Assembly (NCBI RefSeq): GCF_002994745.2
Contig: NC_037092.1
Coordinates: 85,908,398 to 85,972,397 of the forward strand
Length of the DNA stretch: 64,000 nucleotides
Reading direction: 5' to 3'
From: Rosa chinensis
Taxonomy: Eukaryota > Streptophyta > Magnoliopsida > Rosales > Rosaceae
In this document: in pieces, positions 1,168-55,942 of the stretch
Layout of the letters: the number at the start of each line of letters is the position of its first letter
Position numbering within the stretch: position 1 is the stretch's first letter
Program-made: the position numbers and the translations under genes
The notes under the pieces: generated by a model
What the model was told of the DNA's origin: nothing
Database searches by the model: none
What the model saw: the letters and a program-made list of their open reading frames with translations, nothing else

Positions 1168-2955
1168 CTAGGTGTTTTGACGTACTGTTTTGAGCACGAA
1201 TTTCACAATGTGTTCAATGAGGTCCCTTTCAGTTCTGCATTGAGAAGGGTCAAACTCCATTAAGCAAATAATGAACGCAAAATGCAAACATACGTACAAC
1301 AACTTTTGTAATTAATGATAGAAACCTTACTTATAGTCCTTTAAATTCCACCCAGAGAGATTTCCCACTTTTGTTAAATCAGCTTTCCACTGCTCCACCT
1401 TCACTATGTCATACCTTCCGCTCCTTGCATGCTTTTGTAAGGCCACTCCAAATGTATCCTTTTGATATCGTACAACAGAGGGATCCACATCAAAAAAAAT
1501 TGGCAAAATTCTCTTTTTGCCTTTCATGCATTGACAGATCTTTGTAAGTTCATCTAAACACCATGCAGAAAAAGCATAGTTTTTCGACAGAACAATGATC
1601 GCAGACCTTGATTCTTCAATTGCCGTCAGCAGACTTTGAGAAATATCCTCCCCTATCTCAAGTTGTTTATCATCCTTGAATGTTCTAATTTCTCCCGAGT
1701 TTTCCAATTCATGGCTTAAATGGGATAGAAAACTCACGCGAGTGTCTACTCCCCTAAAACTCAAAAACACATCATACTTCCACTGCGGAGCTGGGTCAGC
1801 TAAACTTCCAAAAAATTGAGGAAAAAAGGAAGAAAAAGAAAAGAAAATAGGTATCAATAACAGTGCAGATACAAACAAAGAGAAAACAAAAGGGAAACCA
1901 CAATGAAAAACAGACAAGAAGGGAGGTTGACGGATCAAAAGAAAGTGATAGAAGCACAAGAGAAGACATAGAGCTAAAAAACCGAGTAACTCACAGTTTC
2001 CATTGGTGGCTTGTGTTGTTGCTTCAACTGCTTCAATATCTTTGGTCCACTTTGGCATTCTATGCTTAATTTCAGTAGTATTCCTTTGATTGCACACAGA
2101 TATCACAATGGAATTTTCATCTGACTCCGACGTCATTGTAGGCTCACTTTCAATAGTCTTCATTTGACCGCACACAGATGCCACAATGGCTTCGACAAGT
2201 TCTGTCCCAGTCCTACAAGGAAGAATTAAGGGTCAAATAATGGTCAGCTATATTAATAAGAACAAGAATTAACTCTTGGTAATTGAGATGGCTAATCTCA
2301 ATATCTCATGATGCTTACTTGTAATCCTGTGTATGCCACCCAGACAAAGTGCCCACTTTTCTTAAAGCATCTCTCCACTGATTCACCTTCTTTGATCCGA
2401 ATTGCCAAGAGTGCCCACTGCACACAGATGCCACCATGGCTTCGACAAGTACTGTCCCAGTTCTACAAGGAAGAATTAAGGGTCAAATAATGGTCAGCTA
2501 TATTAATAAGAACAAGAATTACCTTCTCTGATCCGAATCGCAAAAGAGTACCTTTCATCCTGAAAACTCCCCTTTTGATTTCTTACATCACTAGGGTTGG
2601 CCTCATAAAAAACTGGAAGAATTCTGTGACCGTCCTCCATGAACTGGCAAACTTTTGTAAGTTCATCCAAATACCAAGCAGAACAAGCATAATGTTGAGA
2701 CAGAACAACAATTGCGAACCTTGACTCTTCAATTGCCTTTAAGCGAGCGCTAGAAATAAGTTCCCCTGGTGCAATAACTTGATGATCGGTGAATGTTGTG
2801 ATTCTCTTCAGTTGCAGCCGATGGGATAAATGTGATATAAAACTAGTCTCACCATGCTTGAAAATCAAAATCACGTCATACTTCCATCCACGAGCTGTTG
2901 ATGATGGTTCAGCTGATGAAGATGCAGCAGTTTTTCGAGAGATCGGCCGGTACAT
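1168..2955 (-). CDS. Tandem TIR-domain protein without NB-ARC (five exons)
   Basis: Exons read on the minus strand are 2955-2552, 2462-2319, 2212-1995, 1799-1331 and 1234-1168 (stop TAG at 1170-1168). All borders are GT-AG, and the lengths sum to 1302 bp, giving 433 residues. Exon 1 opens at the first ATG (MYRPISRK) and encodes a shortened TIR ([42 protein letters not shown]). Exon 2 is a linker (ELVE/VLVEAMVASV type) fused to the end of a TIR (QWRDALRKVGTLSGWH). Exon 3 is a second linker plus a Ser/Thr-rich tail. Exon 4 is a full canonical TIR (YDVFLSFRGVDTR, AIEESRSAIIVLS, WCLDEL with the expected catalytic Glu, FFDVDPSVVR). Exon 5 is a third linker ending in a stop. Known plant TIRs cleave NAD+ and signal cell death. 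There is no NB-ARC or LRR. The exon 1/2 junction is the least certain. Expression is unknown. Confidence 0.65.
2213..2521. repeat. Intron-exon tandem duplication inside the TIR gene
   Basis: An identical 59-bp intron block occurs at 2213-2271 and 2463-2521, each just upstream (minus-strand sense) of a linker exon. The first 35 or so bases recur at 47600-47634, upstream of the TIR-kinase linker exon. The flanking exon ends (GGATCAAAGAAGG at 2392-2380 and GGATCAGAGAAGG near 2530) also match. This marks an unequal-crossover duplication that produced the composite second exon. Confidence 0.8.
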
Positions 2956-39341: not shown

Positions 39342-41305
39342 TGTCTTTAGTAAGAAGGTGTGCCCTTCTATGCAGTAGCTGATTGCAGGTTCACTTGGTG
39401 TGGTTATTGTGGACAAACATGACAAATATTTGGGTCTACCTACTTATTTAGGGAGAAATAAAACTAAGTCTTTTGCTTACATACAGGAGCGTTTGAACAA
39501 GAAGCTTGAGGGTTGGCAAGGCAAACTTCTGAGCAGTGCAGGGAAGGATCTTCTTATAAGGGTAGTTGCTCAGTCCCTTCCTTCATATACTATGAGTTGC
39601 TTCTTATTACCTAAGCATTTATGTGATTCACTGCATCGGAAGTGTGTTAAGTTCTGGTGGGGCAGTAAAGGTGAGAATCGGAAAACTCATTGGTTGTCTT
39701 GGGACCGATTATGCCAACCCAAAGAGGCTGGTGGAATGGGTTTTCGGGATTTACATGCACATAATTTGGCTCTTTTGTCAAAGCAGGGTTGGACGCTAAT
39801 TCATAATCCAGGTTCTCTTTTGGCTCGATTGTATCAAGCTAGGTATTTCCCTAATGGTGACTTCTGGTCTAGTGAGCTTTCTTCATCACCTTCTGCATGT
39901 TGGAGGGGTATACATGCAGCAAAACATATTTTGAGGAGAGGTGTCCACTGGCAGGTAGGGAATGGGCAGTTAGTAAGGGTTTGGGAGGATCCATGGATTC
40001 CAAGACCCTCTACTTTTCTTCCTATTATTCGTCGTGTGGATGGCCCAGAGAGGGTTGCAGATTTGTTACTTTCAGGTTTTACTTGGAATCAGGTTCTTAT
40101 TAATCAATATTTTGCACCTGAGGATGTGGATTTGATTCTTTCTATATCTCTTAGTCAGCGTGATGTACCCGATCGTCTTATTTGGCATTATGATAAGAGG
40201 GGAAGATTCTCTACTAAAAGCGCTTATGCTCTGGCTTTTAGTGAGTTTCATGATAGTGGGGTAGCTACTTTTCATCCGAGTAATATTTCTTCTTTTTGGA
40301 AGAAGATTTGGTTTTCTCAAATTCCTGGTAAGGTTAAAGTTCATTGGTGGAAAGTTTGCTCTTCTATCCTTCCTACAGCTGCTCAGCTACGTACTAGACA
40401 AGTCTTAGTCCAGGATGGTTGTTAGTTTTGCAATGATCAGGATGAATCTATTAATCACATTACGAGGGATTGTCAGTTTGTAAAGGATCTGCTTTCTTTC
40501 TTCCCTGAGTTGCATGGTGTCCTACAGATTGATTGCAATGAAGGTACGTCAATTGTTACTTGGTTGGCATCTTGTTTTGAAGCTCTCTCTAAAAAGAATG
40601 TGGCTCTTTTACTATTTGTTGGATGGTTTGTATGGAAGGAGCGTAATCTGAGAGTGTGGTCAAATAAATTTGTTTCTTTGACCCACTTGCATTTTCAGAT
40701 TAGATCCTCTTTTATGTTGTTTCAGTCTCATTTGGTTACTACTCAGAGTACTTCTGGGATGATTAGGTCAGGTTGGTCCCCGCCTTCTTCCGGCTGGCTA
40801 AAGGCCAATTGTGATGGTGCTTTTGATTTGTTATCTAAATCTGGTGGGATAGGAGTGGTTATACGTGATGCATTGGGTGACATTATTGGCGGTGCATGCA
40901 TGAAGGTTACTTCTGTTGCCTTTCCTGAAGCTATAGAAGTCATGGCTTGTAGGGCTGCTTGCTCCCTAGCAATACAGTATCATCTTTCTCCCATTATTTT
41001 TGAGACAGATTGTCAGCACTTAGTCTCTTCTGTTGAGTCTGGGGGTGAAGAAACCTCCCCCTTGGGTCGTGATATCGAGGATATCAACTCCTTTCTACAG
41101 GTGCTAGTTGGATCTTCTTTGAGGCATGTGTACCGTGAGGCCAATACAGCGGCCCACAACTTAGCTAAACTTGCTCTACTTTCTTCTTTCAATTTATCTT
41201 GGAGTGGGCATGTCCCTCCAATTATTAGAAGCTTTATTGCTTCCCATTGTACCTATTGATTGGTCAATATAATCAGTTCGTTTTTCCCCTAAAAAAAAAA
41301 AAAAA
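39342..41305 (+). pseudogene. L1-type LINE ORF2, C-terminal part with zf-RVT and RNase H
   Basis: It continues the ORF2 of 34388-35783: KHDKYLGLPTYLGRNK, LLSSAGKDLLIRVVAQSLPS, FWWGSKGENRKTHWLSWDRL, then the zinc-binding zf-RVT (FWKKIWFSQIPGKVKVHWWK). An in-frame TAG at about 40423 breaks it. RNase H follows in the 40510-41259 frame (WLKANCDGAF, IIFETDCQHL, YREANTAAHNLAKLA), ending SHCTY-stop. A poly(A) run at 41290-41306 marks the 3' end. The stops and the truncation make it inactive. Confidence 0.9.
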
Positions 41306-42578: not shown

Positions 42579-45500
42579 TCAACTCTGCCTGTGGTGATTG
42601 TAAGGAGATACTGATCCAGAAGACGTGGGAGGAAGGGGCTTATTTACAAATGGATGTTTTAAAAGCTGAGCAGCAGTGGGACGATTATCTGGCTCAACTT
42701 GTAAGCATAGATGGATAAAATCTTGTGCCTCCCTTGAAAGAGAATCAGGAACCAGAGGGGGCTCCCCCTTCATAATTTTCCATAACGCCGCCATCTGTTT
42801 AAAGAAGAAGAGATAATTAATGTTATCCAAACAAAATAGAGGTTGAAAAGATAAATAGTCTAGTCATTCTGAACCATAAAGAGTCTATTGAAAATGGCAC
42901 AAACCCATTCGAGATTAGGGTATGGAACCATCCTAGTTAACATCTCCAACACAGTACATCCAAGACTCCATATATCAGCTGGAAGGCCATAACCTGGATT
43001 TTCATGTTCAACAACCTGCACAATAATGGCTTGGCTAAGAAATCCTAAAAAAGTGGACACAACGTACTACAGGATAGAATTATCATACGCAACCTCTTGG
43101 TCAATAAACTGGTAATGTATAAGTATCTTGCACCTTTTCAAATTTGCAAAAGCCAAGACATCACCTAAATGCTAGAAAAAGATAATTCATATGATACAAA
43201 GGAAAAATAGAAGCTGGCAAGATACCTACAACCAAAATCCCATCCCCATCAATCACAAACATTCATCAGCCTATAAAGCTATGCAGCCTTAAATAAAAGC
43301 TACAGAAAGTCATTGGGGAGAAAATAAAGGTTCAAACACACGATACGAAACAATTGTTGCGCCAACAAATAATCTCCTTGGCACTTGAGCAATCATTGCC
43401 ACAAGCATAAAGAACTAAATTTACTGTTGATTCTGAAATGACCATCTTAACTAACACTGTTAACTATCATAATTACTTTCTGGACTTAACCCAATTTCTT
43501 TCGATATGCTCTTGGGACGAGTTAACTAAGTAGAATTAACACAATCTAATGAAACTACATAATAGTGCTATGTATCTGGCTGTGTTCTTTGGAGAAAGAA
43601 TTAATTATCTAATCAGAAACAGTTTGGCTCTGTTATCTAATGTTTTCTTCTTTTCTTAAAAACAATAAAGAAAGAGAATAAAACAAAGAGGACAGTAAGA
43701 AGAGGGAAACAAAGAGAAGATACATTAAAATTTACTTACAGACTAAAAACTATTTTAAAAAGCTTATAGTTTTAGTTTTATGCATCCTTCTTCCTCTCCT
43801 TTTCACCTTTCTTATTTCCCTTTCATACTTTTCCTTCTCTTTTTTGTAATTATAAAATAAATAAACATGTAGACATTCTGAAATAAGCCCACCAAGAGAG
43901 GGGGAATCAACATAATTCAGAAAGCTAGGCATTAGCCAAGGGCCAGCACTGATGCATATACTGTATCATAGTTACAAATGATACCATAGTTTAGATTAGA
44001 ACAATAAACCGAGTTACCTAGGCAAAATTGGATAGACTAATTAATACTTGTCATTACATTGCCCACCTTATAATTCCTATCTTCTTGTATTTCAACTTTG
44101 TTTTTGTGTTCTGGTAGAATAGAATATAAGAAGTTATATCACTTTACTGTTCCTCCGGCCAATTATTTACCAATATCCTCTGTTTCTAATAAATGGTATA
44201 TTTAGAATCCAACAACCTAACCAAAGCAACTAACAACAATTCTGTCAGAGTTCAAGAAGCAAGAATCATTCGTGAAAGTCATCCTCTACAAGGATCAGTA
44301 TATTTATCAGTGATGGAACTAGAATAAGACACGAGTGATTGATTTGGAAGTATTATAGGCATGTCCTCCAATAACAGAGCTCTTAAGCACACAAACTAAT
44401 ACAAAATTTTAAATTCTAAAGTGCAAAGGCAAACCTCAGGGGCCATCCAGTTTGCAGTTCCTCGGCAAGAAATTATATCGTTCATTTTGATAGTCTGGAA
44501 AGAGGACGCAACACACAGTATAAAGAGAAATAATTCACAACCGTGTGGAAACTACTGAAAACAATAAAATACAATTGAATTTGGGGAATTGAAGACAAAC
44601 CTTTGCCAAGCCAAAGTCTGCAAGCTTCACAGATCCATTAGCATGCACCAAAATATTTGCACATTTAATGTCCCTGAATGCAAGAAACAAAAAGATGAGA
44701 ATATGTACCCAAAATTACAAGGTAAAGGATGATCAGGAACATTGTGATGGTGCGCCAATTTGTTTTCTCAGTTTTTTGGAATGAATCCTCACATGAATAT
44801 GGCTCATTGGTGGGACTTCAGAATCTTCTGAGATCAATACCGCCAAAACCATAATTTTCACATGCATAAATATACATATGTCACCTGAGTTACCTGTGAA
44901 TCACATTTTGGCCGTGAAGATACTTCAGACCTTGCAAGATCTGTCTAGTGTATACAGAGACATGCAAATCTGTAAGAGGGTACGTTTGATATAGCTTTTG
45001 AAGGGAGCCTTTGGTTACAAGTTCCAGAAAGATGTAGAGCTTTGATTCATCCTGCAAAGACCAAACAGAAAATGTAAATAATATAACGGTGCTCACAAAT
45101 AAGTGGATTCACAGGTGTAAGAGCTATGAAAAATGAATACTGAATCAATAAATGGCTTAACTGCTGCACAATAAATACACCTTCTATGCTACTAGTATAT
45201 ATGTAACGAGTTCCTCATACTATTGGACTCAAACAGAAGTATCATATAGTATGGACACTAGATGATAAGGTAACCCCTCAAATAAATGCATAACAGTGTG
45301 GACAAGCATGTTTACAATTATCTACAGTGAGTTTGTATGTGAGAAAAAATAAATTAAACAAAGATGCTAACTGCATAAAATAAATCATGTGACAGAAAGG
45401 CAAAATATAACTCTGTTTGTAATTATTTCGTATTACAATTATCTACGGTGAGTTTGTATGTGAGAAAAAAGAAATTAAACAAAAATGCTAACTGCATAAA

Positions 45501-47599
45501 ATTAATCCTGTGACAGAAAGGCAATATATACCTCTGTTTGTGATTTTTCCATATTCCAGTCTATGCATTAAAGGAATGTCGCCAATGTCATGTCAATAAG
45601 TTTCAAATAAAAGTAAGCATCTACATATCATTACACGAATCTGTAGCAAAGTAGCAATATCATATCATGAACGGAATTTTGGAAATCCATGAGTACTTAC
45701 AATTGTAGAAAAGTTCATAGCATAGCTAAATAACAATCGATGGGAATAGACTATAGAATAATGAGTACCTTTTGTGTGCCATAATACTGAACTATGTTCT
45801 CATGTTTACATTGACTCAGAAGTGCAATCTCCTGGAAGAAAACAAAAACAAAAACAGACAATGAGAAGAAGAGCATCTCAGCTAGGAACAAAAAACGAGG
45901 TAGACTCTACCGGTATACGATCACTGAGTCAATTACTTAATAGTTAATATCAGGGGCATGAAATTTCAGGACACAACATGAAATACAAGCCAATGTCACC
46001 TGTTCAAGTTGAGAAACTTTTCCTTGATCAAGCAAGGAAACTTCCTTGACAGCAATGAAGCATCCGCCACTGAAAGAGAGCAAGATCATATCAACAAAGA
46101 TCCTGAAAATATCAGAGCTAAAGAAAAGATGAAAACGTGGAACCACTGTTTTAATAAACATTATATGAGAAAATTTGTCAATATATAAGTGCATTGGAAA
46201 CAAAGAAAAGTTCACTTTAATACAGTTATAAATTTTTCATAAGGCCATAAGGGAACAAGGAGTTTATCCATGGAAGTAATGATACTGCAGAAGTTGCAAA
46301 AATAAAAGGAACAAGTGGATAGGCGTCCTCACTCCCCTATTAAAAGATAAGAGATACCACAATGGCTCAATAGTCTCATAACGAGCCTAGCTCGAGCATG
46401 GAAGGTTTCAACTTCCTCTTCACACTGAGCAGAGCTGGTCTTTTCATCACTATATCACCAAGTCCAATTGAATTTTGAAACAATTCACCCTAAAATACTG
46501 GTTATATCGCATCACGTATTAAAGTTACGGCCCTTCACAGGCATGGGTTTACCATTCAATCCACCTAATTCTAAATGTAGAGATAACTGTGAACTAGAGA
46601 AACGAGATCAATATACAATTGAACAAGTCCGACCTCAAGCAATGGAAGATAATGAATTTTAAGACATCTACAAGATTGAGCATTCACAATTAAGCTGCTA
46701 AAATGAGTTTTGAGCAGCACTTACTCAGAAATTCCTTCATACACAGACCCGAAGGAGCCGCAGCCGAGAAGATGACCCTTTTTCCAATTAGTAGAGATTG
46801 TAAACCCAATTTCAATAGGTTTTACTTGACGGCACACAAAATCCACAATTGTCTCCACAAGTTCTCTATCAGTCCTACAAGTAAGGAAGAAACAAGAGTC
46901 AAATAAATACAAAAGCTATGCGCATAACTTTTAGATATTGAAATAGATAATCTCATCATGATCGATACTTACTTATAATTCTTTGTCTGCCACCTGCAGA
47001 GACTGACTACATGGTTTGAAGCATCTTTCCAGCCCTTCATCTTGTCTGATGTGTGTCGCCCAGAGCTTTCATGCTCTTGGAAAGCTTTTTCGAAACTCGT
47101 CTTGCAGTACCGTACATCAACGTTTGCCACATTATAAAAAATTGGAAGAATTCTGTATTGGTTTTTCATGCACTCATAGATCTTTGTAAGTTCCTCCAAA
47201 CACCAAGTATAATGAACATAGCTTTTCGACATAACAACGATTGCAAACCTTGATTCTTCAATTGCCTCCACGAGAGAGGGAGAAATGGGGTGCTCTCGTT
47301 CAAGATGTTGATTCATTGAGAGTCCACTATGTTGCAGCCCATAGTATAAATGATCTGTAAAACTGTTTCGAGTATCTGCACCCAAGAAACTCAAATACAC
47401 GTCATACTTCCACTGACCAGCTGTTGATGATGGTTCAGCTGATGAAGGAAGAGATGCAGCAGTTTGTCGAGAGATTGCAGGTTCAATTTCAGTAGTGGCT
47501 TGCCTTGTTGCTTCAAAATCTCCAGTGTTGATTTCCGCAACGTGTTGTAGTTTACTGTACACAAATTCCACAGTAGCTTCGACAAGATCTTGCTCAGCC
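42579..47599 (-). CDS. TIR-MAPKKK fusion (TIR exon plus MEKK1-like kinase, 9 exons)
   Basis: Minus-strand exons are 47599-46973, 46874-46725, 46069-46000, 45831-45769, 45051-44894, 44673-44601, 44494-44435, 43015-42905 and 42794-42579 (stop). All have AG/GT borders and compatible phases; lengths plus two missing bases equal 510 codons. Order: linker ([10 protein letters not shown]), TIR ([32 protein letters not shown]), linker ([11 protein letters not shown]), kinase. The kinase is complete: [11 protein letters not shown], Lys in [62 protein letters not shown]. It is closest by memory to Arabidopsis MEKK1, a MAPKKK in immune signalling. There is no NB-ARC, LRR or WRKY. The TIR lacks the usual F.DD..L.RG stretch and has SFLG for SFRG. 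No ATG precedes the TIR, so the 5' exon is missing or beyond 64 kb. Confidence 0.82.
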
Positions 47600-47643
47600 C
47601 TACAAGGAAGAATTAAGGGTCAAATAATGGTCAGCTATTAAAA
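47600..47643 (-). other. Intron stub shared with the tandem-TIR gene
   Basis: CTACAAGGAAGAATTAAGGG and the next bases to about 47637 match the introns at 2213 and 2463. Upstream of the transposon (55877 onward) TTAATAAAATAAGG resembles the continuation TATTAATAAGAACAAG. The transposon therefore sits inside the intron preceding the first visible exon. Confidence 0.65.
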
Positions 47644-49023
47644 TGACAAAATACTGTTTACTCCCTATACTTATAAGGTCTCGACGTTTCAGTCCCTGAC
47701 GTTTCAATTTCACTTAAAAAGTCCCTGAACTTTCCAATTTCATCTAAAAAGTTCTTGCTGTCAATTTTCCGTTAAAAAATTTGTTATCTTGCTGACGTGA
47801 CACTATTTCAACAGTAAAATGACTATTTTACCCTTATTGACCCAAAAAAAAAAATTACTCTTTTTTTAACTCTTTTTTCTCTATTTTTTTAATTTGTTCT
47901 TTTTTATTCCTACTCTTTTTTTTAACTCTTTTTTCTCTATTTTTTGAATTTATTCTTTTTCATTCCTACTTTTTTTTTTAACTCTTTTTTCTCTATTTTT
48001 TTAATTTGTTCTTTTTTTTTCCTACTCTTTTTTCTCTCTTTTTTTTTTAACTCTCTTTTCTCTTTTTTTTTTTTAATTTGCTCTCTCTCTTTTTTTTTAA
48101 CCCTCTTTTCTTTTTCTTTTTTCCTACTCTTTTTTCTTTAACTCTTTTTTCTCTTTTAAAAAAAAAAAAAAACTTTTTTCCTCTTTTTTTTATTTGTTCT
48201 CTCTCTTTTGTTTTTTTTATTTTTTATTTCTTTCTCTTTTCTGTTTACCTCTTCTTCCTCTTCCTCCTCTCTGCTCTTCAGCCTTCTTTTCCTCCTCCCT
48301 AATCGCAGCTCCAGTTTTCGGCGAGCATCACCACCTCTCCTAATCACCATTGGCGTGCCCGCCGCTCCAAGCAAGTGCTGGCCATTCCACCATCCATCCA
48401 TCATCCCCGTCATGCCAGCAAGCATCACCACCTCTCCTAATCACCCTCTCCATACAGCGGTTCCAAACCAAATCGGAGCACACCCAAATCAAATCAATTC
48501 ATATTCCACCTCCCTTTCTTCGGTGCCAAAACAGTTCAAACATTTCTCTCTAAAGTTACGATCAGAAACAGCCAAATAGACCAAAACATGGAAACTCGCA
48601 GGAAAACTCAAATATCTTATCCTCTTCGAATCTCTATTGGCTCATCATCTCAGCAAACCAACACCAAAGAAACGTTATTGACGTCGAGAGAAAGCTTCTG
48701 ATATAGCTCCGACACCACGAAGGGGCCGGAATCTGAAGGGAAGAGAACCCGACCATTCCAGCTTCCAAGCGTGGCCGAAAACTGGAGCTGCGATCAGGGA
48801 GGAGGAAAATAAGGCCGAAGAGCAGAGAGGAGGAAGAGGAAGAAAAGGTAAATAGAAAAGAGAAAGAAATATATATATATATATATATTAAAAAAAAAAA
48901 AGAGAACAAATTAAAAAAAAAAAGAGAGAAAAGAGTGTTAAAAAAAAAAAAGAGAACAAATAAAAAAAAAGAGAAAAGAGAGTTAAAAAAAGAGAGAAAA
49001 AAGAGTAGGAAAAAAAAGAGAAC

Positions 49024-49242
49024 TGTTCAAGGAAAACCTAATTTGTGTTTAGCCCAAACTCTAGATTACTTGACCTAGTGGTAATAGGATTTAATTAGAA
49101 GGATCTAGAATCCTAATCAATGTAGAATTACTTTCCTTGTATGATTGAGATTCTATGCATTGTAATCCTCTATATAAAGAGGCCCCTATTATCAATGAGA
49201 ATACAGCAGCAAATTCCTCTCAAATTCAGTTTCTCTACAACA
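49024..49242 (+). repeat. 5' LTR of Copia element 1
   Basis: This copy is 217/219 identical to 55189-55407 by direct comparison. It contains a promoter TATA box at 49171-49177 (CTCTATATAAAGAGG). CGTTATCAGCACGAAG just after the LTR is the likely primer-binding region. Confidence 0.95.
49171..49177 (+). promoter_or_regulatory. TATA box in the Copia LTR
   Basis: TATATAA within CCTCTATATAAAGAGGCCCC. The same motif occurs at 55336-55342 and in the related LTR at 58272-58278. Confidence 0.7.
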
Positions 49243-50304
49243 CGTTATCAGCACGAAGCCCTAACCCTGAAGCCCTAAATTCGTAGCTTTCAAATCCCAA
49301 AAATCACCGCCGCCCACCTTGAAGATCTCAACTCCAACAGTCCAGAACCGGCGGCCCCACCACCAGAACCTGCCGGCAAACCACCGAACCGGCCACCGGA
49401 AGAAGCAATAGTTCTCCTGCCCGGTTCAAAGCATTCTTCACCACCTCCTGCAGCCATACTCGACCCCCTGCAGCATCTCCACCCCAGAAAACCGGAACCG
49501 GAAAATCCCCCACCGGAACCGGCCTAGAACCATCCGAACCGGCCACCAGAAAAGGCTGAAACCGAACCGGCAGAAAGAAAAGAAAAAAAAAAAAAAAAGG
49601 AAGGAACTAGCAGCCGAGCCCAAGCCGCAGCCTGAGGCCCAGCAGCTGAACCATCTGACGTCATCCTTGCGTCATCTGCCACGCCAGTGCCACGTCAGCA
49701 TCAGTCATCTGCCACGTCAACCTCCAGTCAGCTGCCACGTCAGCATCAGTGCCACGTCAGCAATCTGGTCAACACCGGTCAACCACCGCCGGCAACTTTT
49801 CCGGCCGACTTCCGGTGACTTTTCCGGCCACTTTCCGGCGACTTTTCCGGTCAGCTACAGTAACTTCCGGCAGCTACAGTACTTTCCGGCGACGACTTTT
49901 CCGGCCATCTTTTAAGGTATTTTTTTATTAAACGTTCCCGTTTTTTTAGAGTTTTAAAATTGAATTTCTCTTCTTTTTCGGGGACTTCCAACATCCCTTC
50001 TTCTACCCCCCTTTCTTCTTTATAGGGGAGACTAATAGCCGAACTGTGGGGGTTCGTGCTCACTCCAAGCTTGGAGCTTGTAGAGTCCTCCAAACTTAGA
50101 GTTTGTTGAGAAGAAAACGATCGACCACATACATCGTTGTTTCGATCTAATCCAAACCCCTCTTGGAATCGGATTTTCTTGGAAGCGACTACGCTCAGAA
50201 AATTCCTAATTTCTTGGAAGCGACTACGCTCAGAAATTTAACTGTTTTTCGTGGTAGCCTTTTTTCGCTCCGAAACTAACCCTAATCTTGTGTTGTTTTT
50301 CAGG

Positions 50305-51387
50305 ATGAATTACTTGAACAAGTTGAACTTTGTTCCACTCGAGACAACTGGCGCAGGATACCATAGGTGGGTCCGAGATGTGCGCCAACATCTTAAGGCT
50401 GATGGACTTCTGGAAGCCATCCAAGAGCCTAGTCAGAACGTGCTCTCCATTGAGTAAGCTACTGCTTTTGAAGCAAAACAAGCTAAAGACATAATTCTCA
50501 TGACAAGGCACATGAATGACGCGCTCCAAAATGAATACCTCAATGAGGAAGACCCAAGAAAGCTATGGGTAGAACTTGAGCAGCGATTTGGCAACGTTCG
50601 TGACTCCCTGCTTCCTGATTTAGAAGTGCGATGGCATAGCCTCCGCTTTTGTGATTTCAAGTCTGTGCTTGATTATAACTCGGAAGCTCTTCGTATCAAG
50701 TCTCTGATGGAGTTTTGTGGCCAAGCCATAACTGATACGATGTTGATCGAGAAGACTCTCTCTACCTTCCTCGTCTCTGCACTGATGATTTCCAAGAATT
50801 ATCGGATTGATGTAAATGCAGGACGCATCACAAGGTTTCATGAGCTCATTGGCGCCATGAACGTAGCTGAAAAGCACGACAATATTCTTGTGAAGAACTA
50901 TAATGCTAGACCCGTGGGAACTAAGCCTATTCCGGAGTCTAACTATAGTCGCGCCCCCAATGGAGGACGCAAGGAGCGAAACCCTAGGGACAATTCTGGA
51001 CATTCTGGTCCATATGTTCGCCCTAAAGAGGAAGGAAATCGCCGAGAGAGGCGTGCACGGAACCGTGGAGGTCAACGTGTGAAGAGAGAGAGAGGCGGAG
51101 CCTCCGACCATGGTGGTAACGCCACCAAGAGCATAGGTCGTCCAAATCGCGCCCCAATGGCCCCTCGATCAAGGAAGCCTGACCATAATGATGTTTGTTT
51201 TCGATGTGGATCAACTGAACATTGGGCCAAAACATGTACCGCACCCCAGAATGTTGCAAACGCATACAAGACGTATCGTGAAGCAAGGGAAGCGAATTAC
51301 ATGGCACAAGAAGATCAAGATGGCGATCTAGATCTAAGGGTGGAAGACTACAAGGATCAAGACCCAGAAACTGGCGATTTTGATTAA
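50305..51387 (+). pseudogene. Copia element 1 gag, one nonsense codon
   Basis: ATG 50305 (MNYLNKLNFVPLETTGAGYH) opens a gag frame of 361 codons broken only by TAA at 50455-50457, where the sister element has CAA. The UBN2/retrotransposon gag region follows (LWVELEQRFGNVRDSLLPDL, WHSLRFCDFKSVLDYNSEAL). A basic Arg/Gly-rich stretch and a CCHC zinc knuckle (CFRCGSTEHWAKTC, about 51197-51238) bind RNA in active elements. It stops at 51387. Confidence 0.85.
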
Positions 51388-51499
51388 GTCTTTTTATTTT
51401 CCAAGAGATGTAGGCGATTGCTATGTTACTTTTTATTGGATTAGATTTTCTTTGATCATAGAAACAATGATGTACTCCGTTGGCTTATGAATAAAATTT

Positions 51500-54400
51500 C
51501 GAGTTCTTTTCATTATGACTCAATTTTGATTCTAAGCATATTACTTTGTGACTACGATGGCTAGGCCATCAATATTAATTCAAGGACATGGAATAGCCCA
51601 AGTTCCCCTTGCCAAAAGGCACCTTGATTATTGTCGCAAAAGCTCTCTACGCTCATAGGGAAAATCACACCTATGAATAGCCAACGAATTCCATGCGAAA
51701 ATGCATGTAGAGAACGGAAATAAGTTCCTTTGCATTACCTCTAATGATTGCGAACAAAGGCGCATCTTATAGAAGTTTATGTGTCGCTCTAGTGGACTTT
51801 ATGTCACTATTCGAGCTATTAAATCCAATAAAGTTATGAGAGAAGATCTCTTGGATTTATACACATATTGGCTTTGTCACGACAGGATAGATCATCCTAG
51901 TCATGATATGATGATCCGTCTACAAAAGACTTCACATGGACATCATTTCTTTCGAGCAAAACGAAGCATGAATCAAAAGTTGATTCTTAGACTAAGTGTG
52001 ACCGACGCTGCTGCCTAGGGCACCGCCTCCGTCCACCACCAGCCTAGGGCTGGCGTAGTCCCTATCCATGACTCCATGGATGGCGTCCATCATGGTGATG
52101 GCGCCCTAGGTGATGCTGCAATCACCAACTTGCTTCACATAGCGTTTCGAACGCTCAGGCCTAACCAAAATACTCAATGGTTGCTTTTAAGGCCTCTCGC
52201 TCGTTTTACTAAGCCTTTTCCTTAGGGAAATTAGGACTGAGACCGTCCTATGCAAAGGATATGACAATCCTCATTCTGTTCTTACAAATAATCCGTAAGG
52301 ATTTTGTGGATTGATTCAACCAACTTGCGGACGTTTAAATATCTCATGATGTTGGTTGACACGCAAACACACTGGTCACGTGTTGTGCCATTGTCCACCT
52401 ATAAATGATGCTTACGCTACACTCCTAGCACATATCATACAACAACGGGCTCATTCCCCGAATCATCCTATTTAGTCAATTGGATTTGACTATGCTAGAG
52501 AGTTTACATCGAAAGACTTTCGATGGATATTGCAATGGGCTTGATGTTGGACATCACATTCCCATGTACACACCCAATTGGTCTCTCGGACACGACTACG
52601 ATGGTAGTCCGAACATTGGTAATGTGCACCAATCTTCTTACATCCGCTTGGGGTGATGCAATATCGCATGCAGCTATGCTAATTCGTCTATGACCTACCG
52701 CCACTCAATGTACCTCTGCGTTACAGCTAGTGACTGGGTACACGTATTTTGTACTTACGCACATTTGAGTGAGCCATTTATGTGCCAATTGCGCCGCCAC
52801 AGCGCTCTATGATGGGTCCTTACTGACGAATGGGCAACTACGTTGGCTTTGAGACCCCAACAATCGTCTGCCACTTAATGCCCTTGCAAAGCGATCTCTT
52901 TACCGCTAGATTTGCGGGTTGTCACTTTGATGAGACAGTCTTCCCGTCGTTAGGGGGAGATAAGAACACGAATGTTCAACAGGAACGACAGAAATTGTCG
53001 TAGTCTGTCCCCACTATGTCTCATCTTGATCCCTATTAAAGTGACGAGATCACACAAATATGCTGCAAACATGCCTGCAAGGAAGGACGTCCCTACGAGA
53101 GGACGTAGCGCCACCCTACGCGGAGGTAGGCATGGCGCCAATGCCAAAGAGAGTGGCACTCTGGCGTTACAGGCCATGGCCCCAGCTAGGATGTGTGGGA
53201 GGCCCGTGGGTTCGAAGGATACTTTGGCACATTCCAATCCTTTGATCATCAAGACTCAAAATCCGTCTCATGAGTATCTTCCGGGTTATGGTTATCGTTG
53301 GGGGACGCCTCAACGTCAGAACCTATTCCTGAGAATATAGAGCTCTATGAAACTTACACTAGTGTACATGAGACGTGGGATAGAAACTCCATCATAATTG
53401 ATGATGTAGTTGCGTATTTCGTTGCGCATGAGTTCGTTGAGTCAGATGATATCGAACCACGCTCCGTTGATGAATGAATGCCAACGTAGAGAGTCTTTGG
53501 CCTAAATGGAAAGATGCGTTCCAGGTTAAGATGGATTCTCTAACGAAGAGGATGGTTTTCGAGCTAGAGATGCCAACACCTCCTAACATAGAACCTGTTG
53601 ACTAATGGGTCTTCGTTAGAAAGCGTAGTGAGAAAAAGAGATGGTAATCTCGCAAGGCTTCTCACAAAACGCCCTGGAATCGACTACGATGAGACATATT
53701 CTCTCTTAATGGATGTCATTGCACTCCACTATCTTGTCAGTTTGGTAGTTTCCGAATAACTGAACATGCAGCTTACAAATGTGGTCACTACGTATCTCTA
53801 TAGGGATCTAGATACGGAATATACATGAAGGTTCATGGCGAACTTCATTTACCCAAGTCAAGAGGTTCTAGACCACGGAGCGCGTTTACAATAAGGTTGA
53901 AACGCTCACTAAAGTGACTACTTGATTGGGAAGGGATATGCCCACGCGTTTCTATAACAAGTTTCGGATTCTATCGCGGTTCATGTTGGACATGATCTTC
54001 ATTAGAAGCCTTTAAAGAGTCAAGGGAAACCGCTGAACACTTGAAATCCGTAGTTTGAGATGAAGGATTTTGGGAGAACACGATTATGTCTCGGTTTAGA
54101 ACTTGAGCATCGTGTCGATAGATGCTTAGGCATTTTTGACAAAGTCAAGCCCTCAAGCACCCCCATGATCGTCCGTAGTCTTGATCCTGAAAAGGATCCT
54201 CTTCGTCAAAAGGATGATGACGAAGATGTGCTAGAGGCAGAAGTGCCTTACTTAGTACAATAGGCGCATTATTGTACTTATCTCAATGCACAAGACCGGA
54301 CATCTCATATGTTGTGAACTTGTTAGCTAGATATAGCTCTGCGCCAACGCGACGCTATTGGATTGGTGTAAAAGATATCTTTCGATACTTGAGATGTATG

Positions 54401-54960
54401 AATGATATGGGCTTGTTCTATCCCTATAGAGAGATGATGGATTCGGACCCATCACACACCAGAAACGCCGCCAACTCTGGCCTGCGTTCTCTATTCCCAT
54501 CCCAAAACGACATGTGTTTTGGAAGGTTTTGCTGATGTTGGGTATCTCTCTGACCCACACAATAGTCATTCCCAATCCGGTTAAGTGTTCACCATGGGAA
54601 AAGACCGTGACATCTTGGAGGTCTACATAATAGACCCTAGTCGCTATATCTTCGAACAATGCAAAGATCATTGCTCTTCACGAAGTGGTTCGTGAATGTA
54701 TATAGATTGGATCCATAATTACGCATATTCGAACAATTGTGGTTTGAAGTCTACCACAGATGAGCCTACGAGCATTTAGGATAATGCTACTTGTTTTGAA
54801 CAAATGAGGCTAGGCTACATCAAAAGCGACAACACCAAGCATAATCAGCAACAACAAACACTCCTCGAGATCAAAGTGAACTAGGTTCGATCTGATGACA
54901 GTGAGGCAGACTTGTTTACTAAGTCATTGCCCAAATTCCACGTTCGAGAAACATATGGCA
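51500..54960 (+). pseudogene. Copia element 1 pol, heavily decayed
   Basis: Recognisable pieces in shifting frames: an integrase-side block (GFETPTIVCHLMPLQSDLFT near 52850), TSVHETWDRNSIIIDDVVA near 53360, RPGIDYDETYS near 53670, the RT-RNase H connection KVKPSSTPMIVRSLDPEKD near 54150, and YLSQCTRPDISYVVNLLARY near 54280. The RT catalytic box region near 53985 (VHV.HDLH) is disrupted by a small deletion. GAATGAATG near 53474 carries a 4-bp duplication that shifts the frame. No protein can be made from it. Confidence 0.8.
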
Positions 54961-55179
54961 AGAATTGGCTTGCGGAAATTATCTGAACTCCCATGATCGT
55001 AGTCATCAGGGGGAGGCGCAGGCATCAGGGGGAGATGTCTACATGTTCACCTCGAAACGTGAAGGGTGTGTTGTGCTCTTTTTCCCCTTCGACCGAGGTT
55101 ATTTTTGTCCCACTGGGTTTTTGTTACTCGGCAAGGTTTTTAATGAAGCAATGAGAGAAGCACCGCGTTTGGGAAACAC

Positions 55180-55188
55180 AAGGGGGAG
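55180..55188 (+). other. Polypurine tract of Copia element 1
   Basis: AAGGGGGAG directly precedes the 3' LTR. Confidence 0.75.
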
Positions 55189-55407
55189 TGTTCAAGGAAA
55201 ACCTAATTTGTGTTTAGCCCAAACTCTAGGTTACTTGACCTAGTGGTAATAGGACTTAATTAGAAGGATCTAGAATCCTAATCAATGTAGAATTACTTTC
55301 CTTGTATGATTGAGATTCTATGCATTGTAATCCTCTATATAAAGAGGCCCCTATTATCAATGAGAATACAGCAGCAAATTCCTCTCAAATTCAGTTTCTC
55401 TACAACA
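55189..55407 (+). repeat. 3' LTR of Copia element 1
   Basis: It pairs with 49024-49242; TSD AGAAC follows at 55408-55412. Confidence 0.95.
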
Positions 55408-55942
55408 AGAACAAATTAAAAAAATAGAGAAAAAAGAGTTAACAAAAAGTAGGAATAAAAAAGAACCAATTAAAAAAATAAAGAAAAAAGAGTAGAAAAA
55501 AAAAAGAAGAGAACAAATTAAAAAAATAGAGAAAAAAGAGTTAAAAAAAGTAGGAATAAAAAAGAACAAATTAAAAAAATAGAGAAAAAAGAGTTAAAAA
55601 AAATTAGGAATAAAAAAGAACAAATTAAAAAAATAGAGAAAAAAGAGTTAATAAAGAGAAAAGAGAGTAATTTTTTTTGTCAGTAAGGGTAAAATAGTCA
55701 TTTTACTGTTGAAATAGTGTCACGTCAGCAATATAACAGACTTTTTAACGGAAAATTGACGGCAGGGACTTTTTAGGTGAAATTGGAAAGTTCAGGGACT
55801 TTTTAGGTAAAATTAAAACGTCAGGGACTGAAACGTTGAGACCCTATAAGTATAGGGAGTAAACAGTATTTTGTCCTTAATAAAATAAGGGGTCTGACTC
55901 TTCTAAAGTGAGAAATCTGTGAATTTACTTTAATTTCTTAAA

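What the first reader, a model, noticed from the sequence alone, without database searches (positions are those of the whole stretch)
42579..47599. TIR domain joined directly to a MEKK1-like MAPKKK
Nine exons with GT-AG borders give one continuous frame (510 codons including two owed bases) from a TIR through a TNL-style linker into a complete kinase with all catalytic motifs. Arabidopsis WRKY19 (At4g12020) combines TIR-NB-LRR, WRKY and a MAPKKK, but here NB-ARC, LRR and WRKY are absent, so a TIR would be coupled directly to MAPK signalling. If transcribed as one mRNA, this would be an unusual short-circuit immune receptor or signal amplifier.
Basis: partly seen in the sequence, partly recalled or inferred. 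Interest (0 to 1): 0.9.

Follow-up and report, generated by a model that had tools for sequence, protein, structure and literature searches.

The report
Broken rose TIR-TIR-MAP3K fusion gene
A rose chromosome carries the last nine exons of a gene that joins plant immune TIR domains to a MAP-kinase cascade kinase; the join is real and similar joins seem to have arisen more than once in other plants, but in this genome the first exon of this copy is broken by a jumping gene.

Summary
The join is real. Nine GT-AG exons at 47599-42579 (-) read as one 508-codon frame, TIR then MEKK1-type kinase. But the model is only the 3' part of a gene. The top database hit, Rosa sericea P0001 (666 aa, 495/508 identical), is TIR-TIR-kinase. 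The missing first exon lies outside the window; in this genome it is split by a 10,021-bp CACTA-type insert and also frameshifted. No in-frame ATG precedes the TIR, so this copy most likely cannot make the fusion.

Rose relatives with an NB piece and MEKK1's N-terminal region suggest stepwise loss. Kinase trees reject one origin for 13 TIR-MEKK1 rows (p-AU 2.5e-5). Transcription was not testable. The 'short-circuit receptor' is unproven; an integrated MEKK1 bait is at least as likely. TIR-kinase combinations and the TNL-WRKY-MEKK fusion were already known, so this is a new variant of a known kind, with a damaged copy in the window.

The parts
46973..47599 (-).
   Evidence: Acceptor ending TTGTAG before 47599 and donor GTAAGT; Pfam TIR 2.9e-34; 96% identical to P0001 residues 158-367
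46725..46874 (-).
   Evidence: Residues 209-237 align with the linker of the NB-LRR frame L026 (375 kb away, same cluster); residues 235-259 align with Rosa MEKK1 P0011
46000..46069 (-). Kinase exon with the AVK lysine
45769..45831 (-). Kinase exon beginning (Q)EIALLSQ
44894..45051 (-). Kinase exon ending in HR of HRD
44601..44673 (-). Kinase exon with D of HRD and DFG
44435..44494 (-). Kinase exon with activation loop and MAPE
42905..43015 (-). Kinase exon ([13 protein letters not shown])
42579..42794 (-). Last exon, kinase C-terminus and stop
47642..55878 (.). Nested mobile DNA in the first intron: inverted arms 47642-48100 / 55416-55878 around an element with 219-bp direct repeats at 49024-49242 and 55189-55407 (99.1% alike), read as an LTR retrotransposon (inference)

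Best explanation
The window holds exons 2-10 of a TIR-TIR-MAPKKK gene of the rose lineage. SHOWN: the chimeric exon, the intact kinase motifs, the glutamate of the TIR catalytic site, the near-identical unbroken gene model in Rosa sericea, and the split and frameshifted first exon in this genome. INFERRED: a TIR-NB-LRR cluster gene recombined with a copy of MEKK1; deletions removed the NB remnant and the MEKK1 N-terminal region, leaving linker and kinase in one exon; a CACTA insertion broke the first exon here, so this copy is most likely a 5'-truncated pseudogene. Where the gene is intact, the protein most likely works as a TIR signalling module carrying a MEKK1 kinase as integrated bait: effectors that hit the MEKK1 step would disturb the fused kinase, and TIR self-association and NAD-based signalling would then start defence.
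For: Frame, splice sites and domains. Chimeric exon: 29 residues like a cluster NB-LRR gene's linker, then 25 like MEKK1. P0001 of R. sericea: 666 aa, two TIR stretches and a kinase by Pfam, 495/508 identical. First exon split: P0001 residues 1-107 at C5:85984103-85983783, residues 116-158 at 85973737-85973609; insert C5:85973756-85983776 with 31-bp perfect inverted ends starting CACTA and a TGT duplication; beyond it a one-base frameshift and early stop. The MEKK1 N-terminal part (P0011 residues 1-301) matches P0004 and P0006 over alignments of 159 and 145 columns, P0010 and P0016 over 28 and 38, and has no hit at E<=10 in the window protein, P0001, P0002 or P0007. NB-ARC piece in P0004 (3.6e-7) and, under the curated cut-off, P0006 (2e-4). 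Cluster genes L025 and L026 have TIR, NB-ARC and LRR_RPS2. For bait: two fusions have a changed DFG (P0239 Turnera, P0015 elm), and the MEKK1-MKK1/2-MPK4 cascade is guarded by SUMM2 (PMC9048904, passages).
Against: No transcript evidence either way. The nine exons are still open, with intact splice sites, and 97% identical to the R. sericea protein, which an old pseudogene would not show; the break could be recent, or a hidden promoter may be used. Changes polarised by eye between window and P0001 are about equal on both sides, so relaxed constraint is not shown. In the trees P0004 and P0007 branch with Rosa MEKK1 rather than with the window's clade, so the stepwise series may mix two rose fusions; one Rosoideae clade is not rejected (p-AU 0.178) but not shown. 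The bait reading rests on analogy; the rose kinases keep their catalytic motifs, which also fits an active enzyme.
Confidence: 0.6

Rival explanations
1. Short circuit: the TIRs replace MEKK1's own N-terminal region and drive clustering and activation of the kinase, feeding a TIR trigger straight into MKK/MPK signalling.
For: AVK lysine kept in 17 of 17 rows, HRD in 16 of 17 and the DFG aspartate in 14 of 17 (window + 16 proteins; P0127 is cut short). MEKK1's N-terminal region is gone from the window protein and P0001. TIR2 keeps WCLEEL.
Against: No functional data. TIR2's BB-loop region is short by two to three residues. P0015 and P0239 changed DFG. MEKK2, a MEKK1 paralogue, acts in defence without needing kinase activity (PMC8998894, passages).
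Confidence: 0.3
2. Still a working gene in this genome: a promoter inside the intron's mobile DNA or a new first exon drives a TIR2-kinase or truncated kinase product.
For: 508 codons without a stop and all splice sites kept.
Against: No in-frame ATG before the TIR; the first in-frame Met is residue 95, inside the TIR. First exon split and frameshifted.
Confidence: 0.2
3. Annotation artefact: two separate genes, a TIR gene and a kinase gene, joined by software.
For: The related TIR-kinase proteins are database entries named hypothetical, unnamed, uncharacterized or MAPKKK 1-like, i.e. gene models without shown transcripts.
Against: Linker and glycine loop share one 150-bp exon with no stop between them; the same join is in P0001.
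Confidence: 0.03

Closest known systems
Rosa sericea ABKV19_002725 (P0001)
   Same: Same gene by sequence: 495/508 residues identical over the whole window frame
   Different: Has an unbroken first part with ATG and TIR1; 666 aa
Arabidopsis WRKY19 / MEKK4 (At4g12020)
   Same: TIR and a MEKK-type kinase in one immune protein (PMC4759884 and PMC7020509, passages seen)
   Different: Has NB, LRR and WRKY parts; none found in the window frame. Its kinase was not in my trees, so common descent was not tested
Rosa rugosa P0004 and Fragaria P0006
   Same: TIR + MEKK1 kinase within the same Rosoideae group of 11 rows
   Different: Keep an NB piece and the MEKK1 N-terminal region; P0004 branches with Rosa MEKK1, not with the window's clade, and P0006 is unresolved
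Ulmus P0014/P0015/P0018, Turnera P0239, Malus P0024/P0127, Eucalyptus P0031
   Same: TIR and MEKK1-type kinase, no NB-ARC listed by Pfam
   Different: Elm kinases group with Cannabis/Humulus MEKK1 (unresolved), Turnera's with Turnera MEKK1; Malus and Eucalyptus unresolved. No elm MEKK1 was in the trees
Plant MEKK1
   Same: Kinase domain: the rose fusions lie in one group with Rosa and Argentina MEKK1 (support 95/98 and 100/98)
   Different: MEKK1's own N-terminal region is missing

Membership tests
MEKK1-type MAPKKK | Kinase domain groups with Rosaceae MEKK1 | tested here: met
   Group of 8 fusion rows + 3 MEKK1 rows, support 100/98
MEKK1-type MAPKKK | Catalytic Lys, HRD, DFG present | tested here: met
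   AVKE, HRDIKCAN, ADFGL
MEKK1-type MAPKKK | MEKK1 N-terminal region | tested here: not met
   P0011 residues 1-301 have no BLASTP hit at E<=10 in the window protein
WRKY19/MEKK4-type receptor | NB-ARC, LRR and WRKY besides TIR and kinase | tested here: not met
   None listed at E<=0.1
TIR-NB-LRR receptor | NB-ARC and LRR | tested here: not met
NLR with integrated domain | NLR core plus foreign domain | tested here: not met
   No NLR core in the window frame; P0004 keeps only a piece of NB-ARC
Enzymatically active plant TIR | Glutamate of WCLxEL at the RUN1 catalytic position | tested here: met
   WCLEEL at residue 132; aligned with RUN1, where chain 7s2z has A at that position; that 7s2z is the catalytic mutant is recalled
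Enzymatically active plant TIR | Full-length BB-loop region | tested here: not met
   Two residues shorter than RPV1/RUN1, three shorter than P0007
Enzymatically active plant TIR | NAD cleavage | not testable with these tools
   needs an assay
Functional gene in this genome | Start codon and intact first exon | tested here: not met
   Exon split by a 10,021-bp CACTA-type insert and frameshifted

The most novel reading that the evidence does not exclude
Plants have repeatedly and independently fused TIR domains to MEKK1-type kinases (probably at least in Rosoideae, elm and Turnera, besides Arabidopsis WRKY19), giving a recurrent class of NB-LRR-less TIR-MAPKKK immune proteins in which TIR signalling and a MAP-kinase cascade meet in one chain.
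Probability: 0.35. Interest if true: 0.75.

Novelty: new variant of a known kind. Interest (0 to 1): 0.5.

Why it matters
How TIR signalling relates to MAP-kinase cascades in plant immunity is an open question. Natural proteins that hold both parts in one chain, made more than once, would be a direct test object: one can ask whether the TIR controls the kinase or the kinase is bait. Rose relatives also look like steps of such a fusion, with an NB piece and the MEKK1 N-terminal region kept, reduced or gone.

Tried and rejected
Rejected: chance or artefact join (chimeric exon); one common origin of the fusions (13 rows, p-AU 2.5e-5; Rosoideae + elm, 11 rows, p-AU 2.5e-5). The second set was chosen after seeing the tree, which weakens its p-value. 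Not rejected: one origin within Rosoideae (8 rows, p-AU 0.178); Turnera + Eucalyptus + Malus together (5 of 27 rows, p-AU 0.099). For one search I dropped five rows (P0003, P0009, P0028, P0039, P0100). P0010 and P0016 were counted as fusion rows though Pfam labels no TIR in them. The elm grouping with Cannabis/Humulus MEKK1 was not resolved.

Led nowhere: a genome-wide count of TIR-kinase loci (search unanswered). Structure model of P0001: mean pLDDT 72, pTM 0.41; ten-residue blocks in the two TIRs mostly 75-96 (one 64), most of the kinase 30-61, its last 100 residues 61-93; not used for conclusions. No listed hit from sources 'lgn' or 'ena' carried both TIR and kinase labels (120 listed of 6935, 526 and 5194 hits), so no transcript-like support was seen, but most hits were not shown. 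Literature: searches were aimed at TIR-kinase or MAPKKK families, 59 and 74 at side questions; I saw their listings (20 of 292, 3 of 3, 15 of 21, 8 of 8, 15 of 60, 12 of 45, 8 of 104, 10 of 142, in that order of calls) and passages of eight papers, and no account of a TIR-MEKK1 class without NB-LRR.

Full report
OBSERVATION. The nine exons at 47599-42579 on the minus strand are as described. All eight introns are GT-AG; the spliced 1528 nt give one base that completes an owed codon, 508 codons and a stop. Pfam finds TIR at 64-226 (2.9e-34) and Pkinase at 240-487 (1.2e-67), and lists no NB-ARC, LRR or WRKY at E<=0.1. Glycine loop, AVK lysine, HRDIKCAN, DFG and MAPE are present. TIR2 keeps WCLEEL at the position of the RUN1 catalytic glutamate but is two residues shorter in the loop region before it.

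THE JOIN IS IN ONE EXON. Exon 46874-46725 with its split first and last codons encodes [29 protein letters not shown], which aligns without gaps to the linker of NB-LRR frame L026 (375 kb away in the same cluster), and, overlapping by three residues, [25 protein letters not shown], which aligns to Rosa MEKK1 P0011. The fusion is therefore physically real without RNA evidence; whether it is transcribed is a separate question that could not be tested.

THE MODEL IS INCOMPLETE. The first exon shown starts at a splice acceptor, and its open frame has no ATG before the TIR; the first in-frame Met is residue 95. The top hit of the protein search is Rosa sericea P0001, 666 aa; Pfam finds two TIR stretches and a kinase in it. 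Window and P0001 agree at 495 of 508 residues. The window lies at G000:C5:85908398-85972397 of a 515-Mb genome; by size and relatives this is most likely Rosa chinensis, an inference, as no call names it.

THE FIRST EXON IS BROKEN HERE. P0001 residues 1-107 match C5:85984103-85983783 and residues 116-158 match 85973737-85973609. Between them lies an insert, 85973756-85983776 (10,021 bp), whose 31-bp ends are perfect inverted repeats beginning CACTACTACAAAAAGGG, with TGT on both sides: the signature of a CACTA transposon (recalled). Just beyond it the frame shifts by one base and meets a stop. The first intron is 17,612 bp and holds nested mobile DNA: inverted arms 47642-48100 / 55416-55878 (86.5%) around an element with 219-bp direct repeats 99.1% alike. 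This copy is thus most likely a 5'-truncated pseudogene, though the nine later exons are still clean.

ORIGIN. Cluster loci L025 and L026 hold TIR exons and frames with NB-ARC and LRR_RPS2; L025 has a TIR exon, then NB-ARC and a second TIR in one open frame, then NB-ARC-LRR. Rosa rugosa P0004 has TIR, the first 70 positions of NB-ARC (3.6e-7), then MEKK1 N-terminal sequence and kinase. Fragaria P0006 is similar, its NB-ARC match (2e-4) being under the curated cut-off. P0010 and P0016 keep 28-38 residues of the MEKK1 N-terminal side; P0010 also has an NB remnant that aligns to L026 but that Pfam does not list. P0002 keeps VVSQSPDLTKIQG before the kinase. The window and P0001 show neither. A parsimonious order is fusion inside the NB domain, then loss of the MEKK1 N-terminal region and of the NB remnant. 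Against a simple series, P0004 and P0007 branch with Rosa MEKK1 and not with the window's five-row clade, so two rose fusions remain possible; one clade is not rejected (p-AU 0.178).

RECURRENCE. Of the 120 hits listed (5194 passed), 14 carry both TIR and kinase Pfam labels, 10 of 120 listed (6935 passed). They come from Rosa, Fragaria, Malus, Ulmus, Eucalyptus and Turnera. Pfam run again on nine of them shows TIR and kinase in all nine, with NB-ARC listed only in P0006. In a kinase tree of 34 rows, holding the 13 fusion rows together costs 125 log units (p-AU 2.5e-5) and Rosoideae with elm 85 (p-AU 2.5e-5; set chosen after the first tree). Elm fusions group with Cannabis/Humulus MEKK1 (96/91, 97/89) but are unresolved. 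Turnera's fusion groups with Turnera's MEKK1 (99/95; that bootstrap had not settled). A single origin is rejected and two to three origins are likely; Malus and Eucalyptus sit on long branches and are unresolved. Of 17 rows compared (window + 16 proteins) the DFG aspartate is kept in 14; P0015 and P0239 changed it and P0127 is cut short. P0007 lacks the glycine loop.

MECHANISM. For intact copies two readings remain. Bait: the MEKK1-MKK1/2-MPK4 cascade is guarded by SUMM2, and HopAI1, which hits MPK4, is also met by RPS6 (PMC9048904, passages); NLR-fused kinases are common, have conserved active sites and were proposed as sensors (PMC4759884, passages); and two fusions here changed DFG. Short circuit: catalytic motifs are intact in the rose copies and the MEKK1 N-terminal region is gone from the window protein and P0001. 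I put bait slightly ahead; neither is shown.

LITERATURE. [quoted passage not shown] 'TIR-Pkinase' is listed as a domain combination, the kinase not named in the passages seen (PMC4234491). A rose TNL survey found Pkinase among the extra domains of eight proteins (PMC10045381, passages), and a 305-genome survey found Pkinase in NLRs of 20 of 37 orders (PMC12787737, passages). The passages of PMC9806590 that I saw had nothing on TIR-kinase fusions. My searches (listed in Tried and rejected) showed no account of recurrent NB-LRR-less TIR-MEKK1 fusions; the library lacks most subscription papers and I saw only the top of most listings.

Noticed in passing
G000:C5:86089911-86084525 (L020): Another TIR - NB remnant - kinase gene whose last kinase exon has no stop and runs in frame into the next TIR, so the DNA reads TIR-kinase-TIR.
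   Followed up: partly
L025:2613-7938 (-): TIR exon, then one open frame with NB-ARC and a second TIR, then an NB-ARC + LRR_RPS2 frame: TIRs joined to RPS2-type NB-LRR.
   Followed up: partly
window 1180-2892 (-): Further TIR exons of the same cluster at the low end of the window.
   Followed up: no
P0252 (Arabidopsis suecica, 746 aa): MEKK1-like kinase protein with an RPW8 Pfam label (PF05659): another immune-domain/MEKK pairing in a gene model.
   Followed up: no
P0183, P0194, P0197, P0229 (Trifolium pratense): TIR with a kinase; two of the four are named '(putative/probable) inactive receptor kinase': TIR fused to a different kinase family.
   Followed up: no
P0004 and P0006 N-termini: Both begin MWDLNEPP and soon have QPVTRQFFP, which resembles the start of AP2-type transcription factors from memory; not tested (sequences).
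   Followed up: no
window 39379-41259 (+): Two adjoining long open frames that look like reverse transcriptase / RNase H of a non-LTR element, ending about 1.3 kb from the kinase gene's 3' end (identity recalled).
   Followed up: no
window 49024-55407 and about 58100-64057: Two related elements in the same orientation, about 83% alike over 2.5 kb.
   Followed up: no
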